Of a stretch of DNA of 64,000 nt, positions 19,914 to 23,153 are shown piece by piece. Origin of the DNA: Plantactinospora sp. BC1 (GTDB lineage: Bacteria > Actinomycetota > Actinomycetes > Mycobacteriales > Micromonosporaceae). The stretch lies in the NCBI RefSeq assembly GCF_003030345.1, contig NZ_CP028158.1, positions 7,316,001 through 7,380,000 of the forward strand. Reading direction: 5' to 3'. Below the pieces are notes generated by a model. The model saw only the letters and a list, made by a program, of their open reading frames with translations. It was not told the DNA's origin and did not search any database. The translations under genes were made by a program, and so were the position numbers. Position 1 is the first letter of the stretch; each line of letters opens with the position of its first letter.

Positions 19914-20303
19914 CTATCCGGCACGGTGCCGCAGCGTCGCGACGGCCGACCCGGCGAGGGTGAGCAGGCATTCCGGCAGCTGCCCGTCGGCGAGCGCGGC
20001 ACCGAAGAGTGCGGCTCCCGTGTCGCCGTCGGCGTTGGCGTACGCGCTGACGAACCGGGCCACCCAGCGCGCGTCGTAACCCGCCTCGTCGATGCCGGGG
20101 AAGTCGAGGGTCCACGCGCCCCGGGGCACACCGTCGCCGACCATGGTGGCGGCGAGGCACCAGGCCACCTCGTAGGCACCCGCGACACCGGACCGGTCGA
20201 CCACCGCGTCGAACGTGCCGACCACGCCGTCGCTGTCACCGGCCAGCGCGGAGGTGAGCACCGCGGTGGCGTCATCCAGCGTCTCCTGCGGAACGTCCGT
20301 CAC
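19914..20303 (-). CDS. Hypothetical acidic protein
   Basis: A 129-residue protein starting at GTG 20303 (VTDVPQETLDDATAVLTSAL). It is helical-looking and Ala/Asp-rich, with no motif I recognise; there is no signal peptide or membrane span. The codon pattern looks genuine, and it fits between DUF2786 and the divergent binding-protein gene. The 170-bp upstream gap contains a loose inverted repeat (GCAGCGT at 20331-20337 and ACGCTGC at 20354-20360). Confidence 0.6.
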   Translation of the reverse strand: MTDVPQETLDDATAVLTSALAGDSDGVVGTFDAVVDRSGVAGAYEVAWCLAATMVGDGVPRGAWTLDFPGIDEAGYDARWVARFVSAYANADGDTGAALFGAALADGQLPECLLTLAGSAVATLRHRAG

Positions 20304-20473
20304 GTGCGGAAGGGTATGCCGCCAGGTCAAGCAGCGTCCGACAAACGGCATGAACGCTGCCTAACCAGGATGATAGTGCCCCTCGATCGGCAATTGACGG
20401 TCGACCGCGGGCGCGCGCCGGAACCAGGCGCGCTAATCTGCGCAACGGATCTCCGGGGAGGAAGGACACCCCC

Positions 20474-21844
20474 ATGCTCGAATTCCGCGGCACCCGCCGC
20501 GCCGCCCTGTCCGCCGCGGCCTGTGCGGCACTGCTGCTTGCCGGCTGCGGCTCGGACGGCGACGGCGAGGCCGGGCAGGCCGAGCAGACCCGGCCGACCC
20601 AGGTCCGGCTGTACGGCACGGACGGCAACATGCAGAACTCCTTCAAGGCGGAGTTCGACCAGCAGACCGGCCTGCTCAAGGGCATGAAGGGAACCACGCC
20701 ACTCACCCCGCTCTCCGAGGACTTCAAGAACCGGCTGTTGCGGAAGGACCCCAAGCTCTCTGACTTCCTCTACGCCGCCGAGTCGTACGACGCCGTCGCG
20801 ATCAGCGCGATCGCGGCGCAGCTCGCCGGCTCCACCGACCCGGCCGAGATCGCCAAGCAGATCGTCGGGGTCACCACCGGCGGCGAGCACTGCGACTCGA
20901 TCGCGGCCTGCCTGCAACTCGCCCGGAACGGCACCGACGTCGCCTACCGGGGCGTCTCGCTGAAACGGGGTGGCTTCACCGACGTCGGCGAGCCCTCCAC
21001 GGCGAGCTACGCGACCCTGCACTTCGGCAGCGACGAGCAGCTCGACAACGGCAAGACCGAGTTCCTCGGCGCCGGTGACGAGTCCACCGCCAGCGTCAAG
21101 AAGCCGCCGGCCGGCAAGAAGCAGACGAGGGCGGTCGAGGAGCGCAGCGGCGCGCCGTTGAAGCTCGGTGGACTGCTGCCGCGCACCGGCGACCTGGCGC
21201 TGGCCTACCCGCCCATGGTGGCGGCCGCGACGCTGGCGATCGAGGAGGTCAACGCCGCTGACGGCGTACTCGGCGAGCCGGTGGTCTGGGTCGACGGCGA
21301 CGACGGCACCAACCCGAACACCGCGAAGGCGACGGTGGCGCAGCACGTACGCGCCGGGGTGCACGTGATCATCGGGGCCGGTGGCTCCGGCATCTCCCGG
21401 GCGGTACTCCCGGACGTGATGGCCGCCGGACTGGTGCTCTTCTCGCCGAGCAACACCGACGCCGGGCTCAGCACCGTGGAGGACAAGGGGCTCTACTTCC
21501 GGACCGCCCCGTCGGACATCCTCCAGGGGCGGGCGCTCGCCGACATGATCCTGCGGGACGGGCCGAACCGGATCGCGCTGGTCGCCCGGCAGGACTCGTA
21601 CGGCGAGGGCCTCCAGGGCAACGTCCGGGCCGAACTGGAGCGGGCCGGGCACGGCTCGGACCAGGTGCGGCTCTTCAACTACGAGGTGAAGGACGGGCCG
21701 GACGCGCCGCCGGTGGACTTCACCAAGGGCGCCCAGGAGATCAAGGAGTTCGGCGCCGACGCGATCCTGGTGATCGGGTACGGCGAGTCGGCGAGGGTCA
21801 TCGAGGCGCTCGCCGCCGCCGGGGTGAGCATCCAACAGCAGTAG
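20474..21844 (+). CDS. Circularly permuted Leu/Ile/Val-type ABC substrate-binding lipoprotein
   Basis: A 456-residue lipoprotein (lipobox LLAGC, Cys25) of the Peripla_BP_6/LivK class, but with its halves swapped. Residues about 42-200 read like the normal C-terminal half (YGTDGN, LKGMKGTTPL, LRKDPKLSDFLYAAESYDAV, GEHCDSIAAC). A linker rich in Ser, Lys, Pro and Arg (about 201-228) follows. Residues about 229-456 then read like the normal N-terminal half (LKLGGLLPRTGDLA, AIEEVNAADGVLGEPVVWVD, LFSPSNTDAG, LYFRTAPSDILQGRALADM) and stop after AAAGVSIQQQ. The native order would join IQQQ to the strand before YGTDGN. There is one uninterrupted frame with a single signal peptide, so it is not a simple pseudogene. 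It stands alone without permease or ATPase genes; the ligand is unknown. Confidence 0.85.
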   Translation: MLEFRGTRRAALSAAACAALLLAGCGSDGDGEAGQAEQTRPTQVRLYGTDGNMQNSFKAEFDQQTGLLKGMKGTTPLTPLSEDFKNRLLRKDPKLSDFLYAAESYDAVAISAIAAQLAGSTDPAEIAKQIVGVTTGGEHCDSIAACLQLARNGTDVAYRGVSLKRGGFTDVGEPSTASYATLHFGSDEQLDNGKTEFLGAGDESTASVKKPPAGKKQTRAVEERSGAPLKLGGLLPRTGDLALAYPPMVAAATLAIEEVNAADGVLGEPVVWVDGDDGTNPNTAKATVAQHVRAGVHVIIGAGGSGISRAVLPDVMAAGLVLFSPSNTDAGLSTVEDKGLYFRTAPSDILQGRALADMILRDGPNRIALVARQDSYGEGLQGNVRAELERAGHGSDQVRLFNYEVKDGPDAPPVDFTKGAQEIKEFGADAILVIGYGESARVIEALAAAGVSIQQQ

Positions 21845-21992: not shown

Positions 21993-22655
21993 ATGAGCTA
22001 CGACGGCGACCCCAGCGCGCTGGGTGAGGCCCTTCCGGAGCAGGAGCTGCCCGGCGTCGACGACCAGCAGGGTTTCGGCCCGGCGGTGGAGCTCACCCCG
22101 GACCCGCTCTCCCCGGACCCGCTCTCCTCGGACCCGCTGGCGGCCGACGGGCTGGAGGCGGGCGACGAGCCCGCGCCGGTCACCTCCGTCGTCACGCACT
22201 ACGCGGACGGCATCACCGAGGTCGCCACCGACCTCGACGGCGACGGCTACGCCGAGCTGCTCGAGTTCGACGTCAACGGCGACCGGGTGGCCGACGTGCG
22301 CTACCAGGACACCGACTGGGACGGCCGGCTGGACAGCGTCGAGCGGGACTCCGACCTGGACGGTCGGGTCGACCAGGTGCTGGAGGACAACGACGGAGAC
22401 GGCCGGGTCGACTCGGTGGTCACCGACACGAACCGGGACGGCGTGGTGGACCGGGTGGTCGCGGACGCCGACTTCGACGGGCGGCCGGACACCTGGATGA
22501 CCGACAGCGACTTCGACGGGCGGCCGGACGAGATCCGGGTCGACCCCGACGAGGACGGTCGGGCCGACCGGCTGATGCTGGACACCGACCACGACGGCAC
22601 CGTCGACCAGGTCAACTACCAGGACCGGCAGACCAACCCGTACGTCACGAACTGA
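21993..22655 (+). CDS. Acidic protein with DxDxDG (thrombospondin type-3-like) repeats
   Basis: A 220-residue protein. An acidic N-terminal 75 residues include a DPLSPDPLSSDPL repeat. About ten tandem units of 12-13 residues follow, built on D-x-D-x-D-G-R-x-D (DLDGDGYAELLEF, DTDWDGRLDSVER, DNDGDGRVDSVVT, DTNRDGVVDRVVA). Such units bind Ca2+ in EF-hand-like or TSP3 proteins. There is no signal peptide or membrane span, so a cytosolic Ca2+-binding or scaffolding role or non-classical export would be needed. ATG 21993 has GGGAGG upstream. A smaller paralogue follows. Confidence 0.8.
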   Translation: MSYDGDPSALGEALPEQELPGVDDQQGFGPAVELTPDPLSPDPLSSDPLAADGLEAGDEPAPVTSVVTHYADGITEVATDLDGDGYAELLEFDVNGDRVADVRYQDTDWDGRLDSVERDSDLDGRVDQVLEDNDGDGRVDSVVTDTNRDGVVDRVVADADFDGRPDTWMTDSDFDGRPDEIRVDPDEDGRADRLMLDTDHDGTVDQVNYQDRQTNPYVTN

Positions 22656-22904
22656 TCGCGGCGGACCGGCCCGGCGGGCGGCTACCCCGCTCGGTGCCGC
22701 GCCGGATCCGTCCGGCTTGGCTGCCTCTGCCCCGGTCGACCCGGGTGGCGCCGCACCCCGGTCGGCATGCTCGGGGGCCCACGGGGGTAGTGCGAGGTGG
22801 CACAGTGCGGTAGTCGTGTCGGGGAGGTTCTCGTGGGTGTCCGGGCGGCACGCGAACCGAGGGTTCCGGCGTGGCCAGACTTCAAGCTGACGGAAGGGCA
22901 ACAG

Positions 22905-23153
22905 ATGAGCGAGTCGCAGGAGACCGTCGACACCCGCGGTGACGAACGGATCGAACTGCTCCGGGCGGACGCCAACCAGGACGGCAAGACCGACGTCTGG
23001 GTGGTCGACACCGACGGCGACGGCAAGCCGGACCTCTTCCAGTTCGACACCGACGGCGACGGCAAGGTCGACATCACGATGGTCGACGCCGACGAGGACG
23101 GCAAGCCGGACGAGGTGGTGGACGGGGACGGCGGGCACCCGCCGACCGCCTGA
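22905..23153 (+). CDS. Small DxDGDGK-repeat protein, paralogue of the preceding gene
   Basis: An 82-residue, very acidic protein with four or five units of D-x-D-G-D-G-K-x-D (DANQDGKTDVWVV, DTDGDGKPDLFQF, DTDGDGKVDITMV, DADEDGKPDEVVD). It lacks a signal peptide. ATG 22905 follows GGAAGG. The repeats use Lys where the larger paralogue uses Arg, so the pair diverged or specialised. A terminator follows at 23182-23226. Confidence 0.75.
   Translation: MSESQETVDTRGDERIELLRADANQDGKTDVWVVDTDGDGKPDLFQFDTDGDGKVDITMVDADEDGKPDEVVDGDGGHPPTA

What the first reader, a model, noticed from the sequence alone, without database searches (positions are those of the whole stretch)
20474..21844. A naturally circularly permuted Leu/Ile/Val-type substrate-binding protein
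Seen in the sequence: after one lipoprotein signal, residues about 42-200 look like the C-terminal half of a Peripla_BP_6 protein (YGTDGN, DPKLSDFLYAAESYDA, the GEHCDSIAAC Cys pair). Residues about 229-456 look like its N-terminal half (LKLGGLLPRTGDLA, INAADGVLGEPV-like, SPSNTDAG, YFRTAPSDILQGRALADM), and the protein ends at AAAGVSIQQQ, just before the strand with which the first half starts. A 28-residue Lys/Pro/Ser linker joins the former termini. The family order is N-half then C-half (established). Inference: a circular permutation by duplication and trimming or by rearrangement of a tandem copy, with lipid anchor and hinge re-wired. It has no transport partners nearby, so it could be a sensor.
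Basis: partly seen in the sequence, partly recalled or inferred. Interest (0 to 1): 0.82.

Follow-up and report, generated by a model that had tools for sequence, protein, structure and literature searches.

The report
Repeatedly evolved circularly permuted binding lipoprotein
This gene encodes a nutrient-binding surface protein whose two halves have been swapped end to end; relatives suggest that the same kind of swap arose several separate times in actinobacteria, while ordinary unswapped versions survive at the same gene location in close relatives.

Summary
The finding holds and is larger than stated. The 456-aa lipoprotein at 20474-21844 is a natural circular permutant of a Leu/Ile/Val-type (Peripla_BP_6) substrate-binding protein (SBP). 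It is not an assembly error: 28 full-length relatives in named Micromonosporaceae share the order, and by score 189 of 300 sampled genomes of the family carry it. The decisive evidence is unpermuted relatives with the same two halves in one ORF in the opposite order: among fetched loci, 54 distinct permuted and 63 native proteins. All permuted ones split at one of two native positions, the pieces meeting within a few residues. A native relative's model matches LivK over its whole chain; the permuted model's best LivJ/LivK hits cover about 230 columns. The best tree needs five changes of order; topology tests mostly agree, not all. At least four origins is my estimate. Outside Micromonosporaceae the permuted protein sits at a liv operon in 14 of 14 loci examined; in one genus native and permuted forms share one locus. 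Here it is an orphan. Ligand and function are untested. A permuted SBP of another family was already known (TpMglB-2, PMC4990184).

The parts
20474..21844 (+). Gene for the circularly permuted substrate-binding lipoprotein (456 aa, stop included)
   Evidence: 28 full-length relatives in the same order
20474..20548 (+). Signal peptide and lipobox LAGC; lipid-modified Cys predicted at residue 25
   Evidence: read from the translation; lipobox rule recalled; f26 permuted proteins keep the native signal stretch (native positions 1-41, 23.4 bits in L077 and 25.5 in L079) at their own N-terminus
20600..21073 (+). Moved piece B (residues 43-200): C-terminal part of the normal protein, native positions about 268-417
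   Evidence: native-profile match E 3e-43; the homologous piece lies C-terminal in 63 relatives
20891..20911 (+). Conserved Cys pair C140/C146 within piece B
   Evidence: invariant in the 29-row permuted alignment and, as C388/C394, in the 17-row native alignment
21074..21154 (+). Linker joining the former C-terminus to the former N-terminus (residues 201-227, Lys/Pro/Ser-rich)
   Evidence: sequence; AF2 pLDDT falls to about 64 in residues 191-210 and under 50 at 202-204
21155..21841 (+). Piece A (residues 228-456): N-terminal part of the normal protein; ends at the new C-terminus, native position about 270
   Evidence: Peripla_BP_6 1-216/343, 113.6 bits; native-profile match E 3e-65; split table
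19917..20351 (-). Context only: divergent 145-aa gene of unknown function, present near the permuted gene in the 28 named Micromonosporaceae loci
   Evidence: tblastn hit in 28 of 28 loci; no Pfam match
22884..23150 (+). Context only: small downstream gene (89 aa as read here; 118 aa) conserved near the permuted gene
   Evidence: tblastn hit in 28 of 28 loci; no Pfam match

Best explanation
The protein is a lipid-anchored type I substrate-binding protein of the Leu/Ile/Val (HAAT) kind whose gene was circularly permuted. The C-terminal third of the normal protein was placed right after the signal peptide and anchor linker, the old ends were joined by a flexible linker, and new ends were opened in the loop just before the strand carrying Y-x-x-D-G-N. 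It most likely folds into the normal two-lobed clamp and binds an amino-acid-like solute between the lobes, with the lipid tether now entering at that strand instead of at the old N-terminus. In Micromonosporaceae it has no operon partners; it probably hands ligand to a resident LivHMGF importer or serves as a tethered binding or sensor subunit. The same kind of permutation arose several times (best tree five, my conservative count four) in this SBP family in Actinomycetota, at two cut sites. Elsewhere the permuted protein sits where the normal SBP of the operon sits in relatives. Shown: the permutation, its conservation, the unpermuted homologues, the loci. Inferred: fold assembly, ligand class, function, duplication mechanism, exact number of origins.
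For: Order: hmmsearch with halves A and B gave 118 ORFs carrying both, none with a doubled half; they are 117 distinct proteins, 54 with B first and 63 with A first, the window protein having been counted twice. Split: all permuted ORFs (55 of 55, the window twice) are cut at native position about 270 (type I) or about 291 (4, type II), the pieces meeting within a few residues. Fold: AF2 of the native-order protein has pLDDT 81.7 and pTM 0.81. Foldseek aligns it to LivJ/LivK structures over about 230 columns (best E 9e-12, TMt 0.57), while the unpermuted homologue's model aligns over 384 columns (3td9, E 1.3e-21, TMt 0.84). Conservation: 189 of 300 Micromonosporaceae by score (193 matches less 4 native ones); dN/dS against the nearest relative 0.12 (YN00) or 0.36 (NG86). 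Recurrence: starred branches force 5 changes of order in the 86-row tree. In a careful 40-row tree AU tests reject type I permutants as one clade (p 3.4e-5) and each pairwise grouping of the three type I lineages (p 7.4e-5, 0.006, 0.009). f28 permutants are 63% and 59% identical (halves A, B) to f28 natives but 41-53% and 38-53% to other permuted groups. Synteny: f28 native (L172, L173) and permuted (L080, L165-L168) genes sit in the same gltD-pyk-pdtaR-SBP-livF-livG-livM-livH-polA locus. Duplication is plausible: head-to-tail native copies exist in f18 genomes.
Against: No structure, ligand or binding was measured, and I could not superpose the model coordinates, so assembly of both halves into one clamp is inferred from pTM and homology. 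A quick 56-row tree did not reject Micromonosporaceae plus f26/f36 as one clade (p 0.167), gave p 0.075 for Micromonosporaceae plus f28, and did not reject the four type II proteins as one clade (p 0.385). Half A alone did not reject Micromonosporaceae plus f26/f36 (p 0.58) and the half B tree did not finish. The 40-row set was chosen by me after seeing the larger tree and leaves out long-branch rows (L030, L031, L091, L093) and the lone f54 type II protein. f28 permutants are nearly as close to f18 natives (60% and 58%) as to f28 natives. Trees were midpoint-rooted and the Micromonosporaceae branch is long. No partial duplication intermediate was found near 22 permuted loci.
Confidence: 0.87

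Rival explanations
1. One ancient permutation spread by horizontal transfer, and recombination with native copies later made the permuted genes look like their local native relatives.
For: Type I cut points lie in the same loop in every type I lineage. Some groupings of permuted lineages are not rejected in the quick tree or by half A alone. Micromonosporaceae permutants are sister to f2 native proteins rather than to Micromonosporaceae natives, so the gene may have moved.
Against: Type II proteins have a different cut, about 21 native positions on. f28 permutants nest among f28 natives with full support and lie at the family's own locus. Both halves of f28 permutants are closer to f28, f18 and Micromonosporaceae natives than to any other permuted group. 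Careful AU tests reject every pairwise grouping of the type I lineages.
Confidence: 0.12
2. Assembly or annotation artefact: two adjacent genes or a rearranged contig read as one permuted gene.
For: Only the general risk; nothing found in these data.
Against: 28 relatives from named genomes of other strains, with the same order and no stops; a single 8.33 Mb contig here; purifying selection.
Confidence: 0.01
3. The N-terminal half is an unrelated domain fused in front of a truncated SBP, not the missing C-terminal half.
For: It has no Pfam match by itself.
Against: Unpermuted relatives carry it C-terminally in the same ORF, and the native model as a whole matches LivK over 384 columns.
Confidence: 0.01
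4. In Micromonosporaceae the permuted orphan is not a transport SBP but a tethered sensor or scavenger with a different partner.
For: No livH, livM, livG or livF match within about 6 kb in 28 of 28 named loci, nor beside the window gene, L121 or L124; L122 has only a weak livF match (27%) about 7.5 kb away. In some genera a native SBP already serves the matching operon.
Against: The two neighbours found in 28 of 28 loci have no known function, and I saw no receptor or kinase family among the window neighbours scanned with Pfam. An orphan SBP can share a resident importer (recalled from E. coli LivJ/LivK).
Confidence: 0.35

Closest known systems
TpMglB-2 (Tp0684) and its relatives, proposed 'Type Ic / Cluster Bc' ligand-binding proteins (PMC4990184, passages read)
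   Same: Naturally circularly permuted type I SBP, lipoprotein, tethered; the authors report the topology in other treponemes and in Gram-positive bacteria
   Different: It belongs to the glucose/galactose (MglB) family; there the first three N-lobe strands moved to the C-terminus and a fourth hinge crossing was added. Here the family is Leu/Ile/Val-type, about the last 155 native residues moved to the front, the cut is at a different place, and recurrence with two cuts is seen
LivJ/LivK-type HAAT substrate-binding proteins (Peripla_BP_6; PDB 3td9, 4n0q, 1z15)
   Same: Homologous over both halves once reordered; best structural matches of the unpermuted relative
   Different: Order of halves, position of the ends and of the lipid anchor; an extra linker; no operon partner here
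DNA methyltransferase permutations and swaposins as textbook natural circular permutants (PMC3320104, passages read)
   Same: Natural permutation, possibly by tandem duplication and trimming
   Different: Different protein families; here native and permuted forms occupy the same syntenic locus within one genus

Membership tests
Peripla_BP_6 (PF13458), HAAT-type SBP | Score above the curated cutoff | tested here: met
   113.6 bits against 31.7
Peripla_BP_6 (PF13458), HAAT-type SBP | Whole profile covered in the normal order | tested here: not met
   Native order covers only 1-216/343; reordered covers 3-311/343
Peripla_BP_6 (PF13458), HAAT-type SBP | Encoded with livHMGF partners | tested here: not met
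   Absent beside the window gene and in 28 of 28 named relatives' loci; present at 23 of 25 native loci and 14 of 14 non-Micromonosporaceae permuted loci examined (the f54 locus without a livH match in the stretch)
Peripla_BP_6 (PF13458), HAAT-type SBP | Two-lobed type I SBP fold | tested here: inconclusive
   pLDDT 81.7, pTM 0.81; Foldseek's best hits are LivJ/LivK but over about 230 columns because it aligns sequentially; coordinates could not be superposed
Circularly permuted type I SBP (proposed 'Type Ic') | Halves in permuted order relative to the family | tested here: met
   54 permuted and 63 native distinct proteins; split table
Circularly permuted type I SBP (proposed 'Type Ic') | Same cut and sequence family as TpMglB-2 | tested here: not met
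   Cut at native position about 270 or 291 of 427, Leu/Ile/Val-type; TpMglB-2 moves N-lobe strands 1-3 to the C-terminus. Compared from the paper's text; no TpMglB-2 sequence was aligned
Circularly permuted type I SBP (proposed 'Type Ic') | Ligand binding with clamp closure | not testable with these tools
   needs ITC, DSF or SAXS
Bacterial lipoprotein | Signal peptide and lipobox | tested here: met
   LAGC at residues 22-25, read by eye; no signal predictor available

The most novel reading that the evidence does not exclude
This SBP family is a hotspot of convergent circular permutation: at least four, probably five independent events, at two loop positions, fixed in place at a working ABC-importer locus. 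Permutation is favoured because it moves the lipid tether from the old N-terminus to the Y-x-x-D-G-N strand near the binding cleft, changing how the tethered protein docks or signals.
Probability: 0.35. Interest if true: 0.88.

Novelty: new variant of a known kind. Interest (0 to 1): 0.76.

Why it matters
Natural circular permutants are usually known as isolated ancient pairs (recalled). Here native and permuted versions of one SBP coexist across a phylum, within one genus and at the same operon, with probably several origins and two cut sites. That gives matched pairs for testing how permutations arise, whether they are neutral, and whether moving a lipid anchor changes an importer. It also shows that order-dependent searches see only part of such proteins: Pfam and Foldseek both did here. 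Biosensor designers who permute binding proteins by hand have a set of natural solutions to study.

Tried and rejected
Rejected: assembly error (28 named relatives); an unrelated N-terminal domain (native homologues); a Micromonosporaceae-only oddity; permuted genes being the operon SBP in Micromonosporaceae (native form at that operon in 11 of 12 fetched loci; in the twelfth, L188, the operon lies at the contig end and no SBP was detected).

Led nowhere: search for leftover second copies of either half near 22 permuted loci (the only extra match was a separate, weak SBP-like ORF in L030); VIA-align search (library not on the machine); tree of half B alone (script ended unfinished) and the AU test of all permutants in the 56-row set (unfinished). 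Anonymous family codes (f26, f28 and so on) could not be turned into names.

Literature: listings with starts of abstracts; one found PMC4990184; no paper holds all four terms. Passages were read in PMC4990184, PMC2861598 (no passage on permutation by the terms searched), PMC3320104 and PMC12667903 (no SBP case by the terms searched). Within these searches of open-access papers I found no report of this family's permutation; most subscription papers are not in the library.

Full report
What was claimed.

Is it there. The ORF is at 20474-21844 on the + strand, 456 aa, in a genome of one 8.33 Mb contig. Pfam recognises only residues 228-452 as Peripla_BP_6 positions 1-216 of 343 (113.6 bits). 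Residues 42-200 alone match nothing at E<=1. Put in the order 229-456 then 42-200, one stretch covers positions 3-311 (125.7 bits, against 112.2 for residues 229-456 alone). That gain is modest and had no shuffled control, so I looked for stronger tests.

Relatives in the same order. One scan of species genomes gave 29 loci; 28 encode full-length relatives in Micromonosporaceae (Plantactinospora, Micromonospora, Asanoa, Virgisporangium, Catellatospora) and one, L033, is a distant partial hit. The 28 share the order and end at nearly the same place. With the 29-row alignment A1 as profile, 193 of 300 sampled genomes of the family match at E<=1e-60 (only the best five candidates per genome were scored). 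Four of these (G028, G173, G203, G253, E about 1e-61) proved to be native-order. I take the other 189 as permuted because a native-order protein is split in two by this profile and in my samples its better half reached E 4e-70 at most. The matches that one search listed (the list was cut) are collinear over nearly the whole model.

The unpermuted homologues. In the class, the same profile meets relatives with positions about 193-443 first and about 36-190 directly behind them in the same ORF. These are the normal form. They carry the same Cys pair, Y-x-x-D-G-N strand and E-S-Y-D-A motif. Taking the loci fetched by then, 118 ORFs carry both halves, none with a doubled half; they are 117 distinct proteins, 54 permuted and 63 native, because the window protein was counted twice. 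These are the best-scoring loci that each search returned, not a census. A profile of 17 native proteins (427 positions) splits all permuted ORFs (55 of 55, the window twice) at native position about 270 (type I: 39 distinct Micromonosporaceae, 4 f26, 2 f36, 5 f28) or about 291 (type II: 4), the two pieces meeting within a few residues of each other. For the window protein the pieces are 26-272 (E 3e-65) and 268-417 (E 3e-43).

Structure. AF2 with the 29-row alignment gave pLDDT 81.7 and pTM 0.81; the only segments below 50 are residues 1-40 and 202-204, in the linker. Foldseek, which aligns in sequence order, matches solved LivJ/LivK proteins over about 230 columns (4n0q_B, E 9e-12, TMt 0.57). 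The matched control, AF2 of the native homologue L082 with 17 rows (pLDDT 84.3, pTM 0.81), matches LivK 3td9 over 384 columns, gaps included (E 1.3e-21, TMt 0.84). That contrast is what a permuted chain should give. I could not superpose the coordinates, so full assembly of the clamp is inferred.

How often did it happen. Besides Micromonosporaceae, permuted proteins were found in f26 (4 genomes), f36 (2) and f28 (1) in a 296-genome class sample; in 5 of 118 genomes of one f28 genus, 68 of which match the profile at all at E<=1e-20; and as type II in 4 of 296 phylum-wide genomes (f54 1, f108 1, f67 2). Family codes are the tool's anonymous codes. Halves were aligned apart and concatenated for trees. 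A 63-row tree, holding type I permutants only, rejects one clade of permutants (AU p 2.65e-43). The 86-row tree needs five changes of order, all forced by well-supported branches. A careful 40-row tree rejects type I as one clade (p 3.4e-5), f28 with f26/f36 (7.4e-5), Micromonosporaceae with f28 (0.006) and Micromonosporaceae with f26/f36 (0.009); I chose these 40 of the 86 rows after seeing the larger tree, leaving out near-copies, long branches (L030, L031, L091, L093) and the f54 type II protein. Results against: a quick 56-row tree rejected type I as one clade (0.005) and f28 with f26/f36 (0.028), but not Micromonosporaceae with f28 (0.075), Micromonosporaceae with f26/f36 (0.167) or type II as one clade (0.385); half A alone did not reject Micromonosporaceae with f26/f36 (0.58), and the half B tree was not finished. 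Independent of trees, the two types have different cuts, and f28 permutants are closer to f28 natives (63% and 59% for halves A and B) than to any other permuted group (41-53% and 38-53%), although f18 natives are nearly as close (60% and 58%). I read this as at least four origins and most likely five, native order being taken as ancestral because it is the order of the SBP superfamily.

Where the genes sit. At 23 of 25 native loci examined the SBP lies beside a livH-livM-livG-livF operon, in most cases facing livF; L086 and L171 show none in the fetched stretch. In many of them the operon lies between polA and a pdtaR-like response regulator. Of 15 permuted genomes outside Micromonosporaceae I examined the context of 14 (all but G375, whose contig is short): the f26, f36, f28, f108 and f67 genes face livF of the same operon, and the f54 gene (L161) lies beside livM, livG and livF in another orientation, with no livH match in the stretch. 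In the f28 genus, permuted (L080, L165-L168) and native (L172, L173) loci have the same gene order, so the permuted form stands exactly where the native one stands. In Micromonosporaceae it is different. The permuted gene is elsewhere, beside a 145-aa gene and a small gene found in 28 of 28 named loci, with no livH, livM, livG or livF match in any of the 28. At the fusion-type operon, 11 of 12 loci fetched from other Micromonosporaceae (five genera) carry a native SBP; the twelfth (L188) lies at a contig end. Four of those genera (g7, g16, g24, g44) also have hits at scores only a permuted protein reached. The window's genome has a classic LivJ operon at its pdtaR-polA locus, its best livM is 35% identical to the one queried, and its livG does not reach E 1e-60. 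The window protein is therefore an orphan paralogue under purifying selection (dN/dS to the nearest relative 0.12 by YN00, 0.36 by NG86).

How it probably arose and works. Tandem head-to-tail native copies exist in f18 genomes (L087, L088, L090, and L089 by two overlapping ORFs), which is the first step of the permutation-by-duplication model (PMC3320104, passages). f26 permutants keep the native signal stretch at the front, and the linker joins the native C-tail to the native pre-domain stretch. So a duplicated gene that lost the first N-half and the second C-half while keeping the first signal would give this product. No intermediate was found. Residues conserved at 90% or more in both 31 permuted and 55 native proteins include the S-x-x-N-T and Y-F-R-x-A-P motifs of half A and the Y-D and Cys pair of half B, so the binding clamp is probably intact. 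Ligand class (amino-acid-like) rests on family resemblance only.

Known or new. A permuted type I SBP is known: TpMglB-2 of the glucose-binding MglB family, for which 'Type Ic' was proposed (PMC4990184). The present family, cut sites, recurrence and same-locus occurrence are different. My literature searches showed no report of it among open-access papers. I rate it a new variant of a known kind.

Noticed in passing
L080:4412-5860 and equivalents (livHfus): The livH permease of this operon carries an N-terminal domain with a weak CarboxypepD_reg-like match (22.3 bits, below the cutoff of 32.3) in front of BPD_transp_2 (Pfam scan of L080 only); tblastn finds the gene at most of the liv loci.
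   Followed up: partly
window 21993-22652 (+): Acidic protein with many D-x-D-G-D type repeats that look like calcium-binding repeats (by eye); no Pfam match. tblastn hits in 13 of 28 loci, but 7 of these overlap the hit of the small neighbouring gene at 22884-23150, so only 6 are a separate gene and the two may be related.
   Followed up: no
L087, L088, L089, L090: Head-to-tail tandem duplicates of the native SBP beside the same liv operon in f18 genomes.
   Followed up: partly
L121 8456, L124 10370, L023 5890, L030 5559: A hotdog-thioesterase-like gene (50-57% identical to the one between polA and the liv operon elsewhere) lies next to the orphan permuted SBP in a few Micromonosporaceae (2 of 28 named loci; two more), perhaps a trace of the ancestral locus; none found beside the window gene.
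   Followed up: partly
G000:C1, about 5543735-5551000 (L114): In the window's own genome the pdtaR-polA locus holds a classic LivJ operon instead of the fusion-type operon, so the locus seems to have changed its transporter.
   Followed up: partly
G018 (L121 and L122): A second permuted copy in the same genome (L122) lacks the conserved neighbours, so the orphan has itself duplicated.
   Followed up: no
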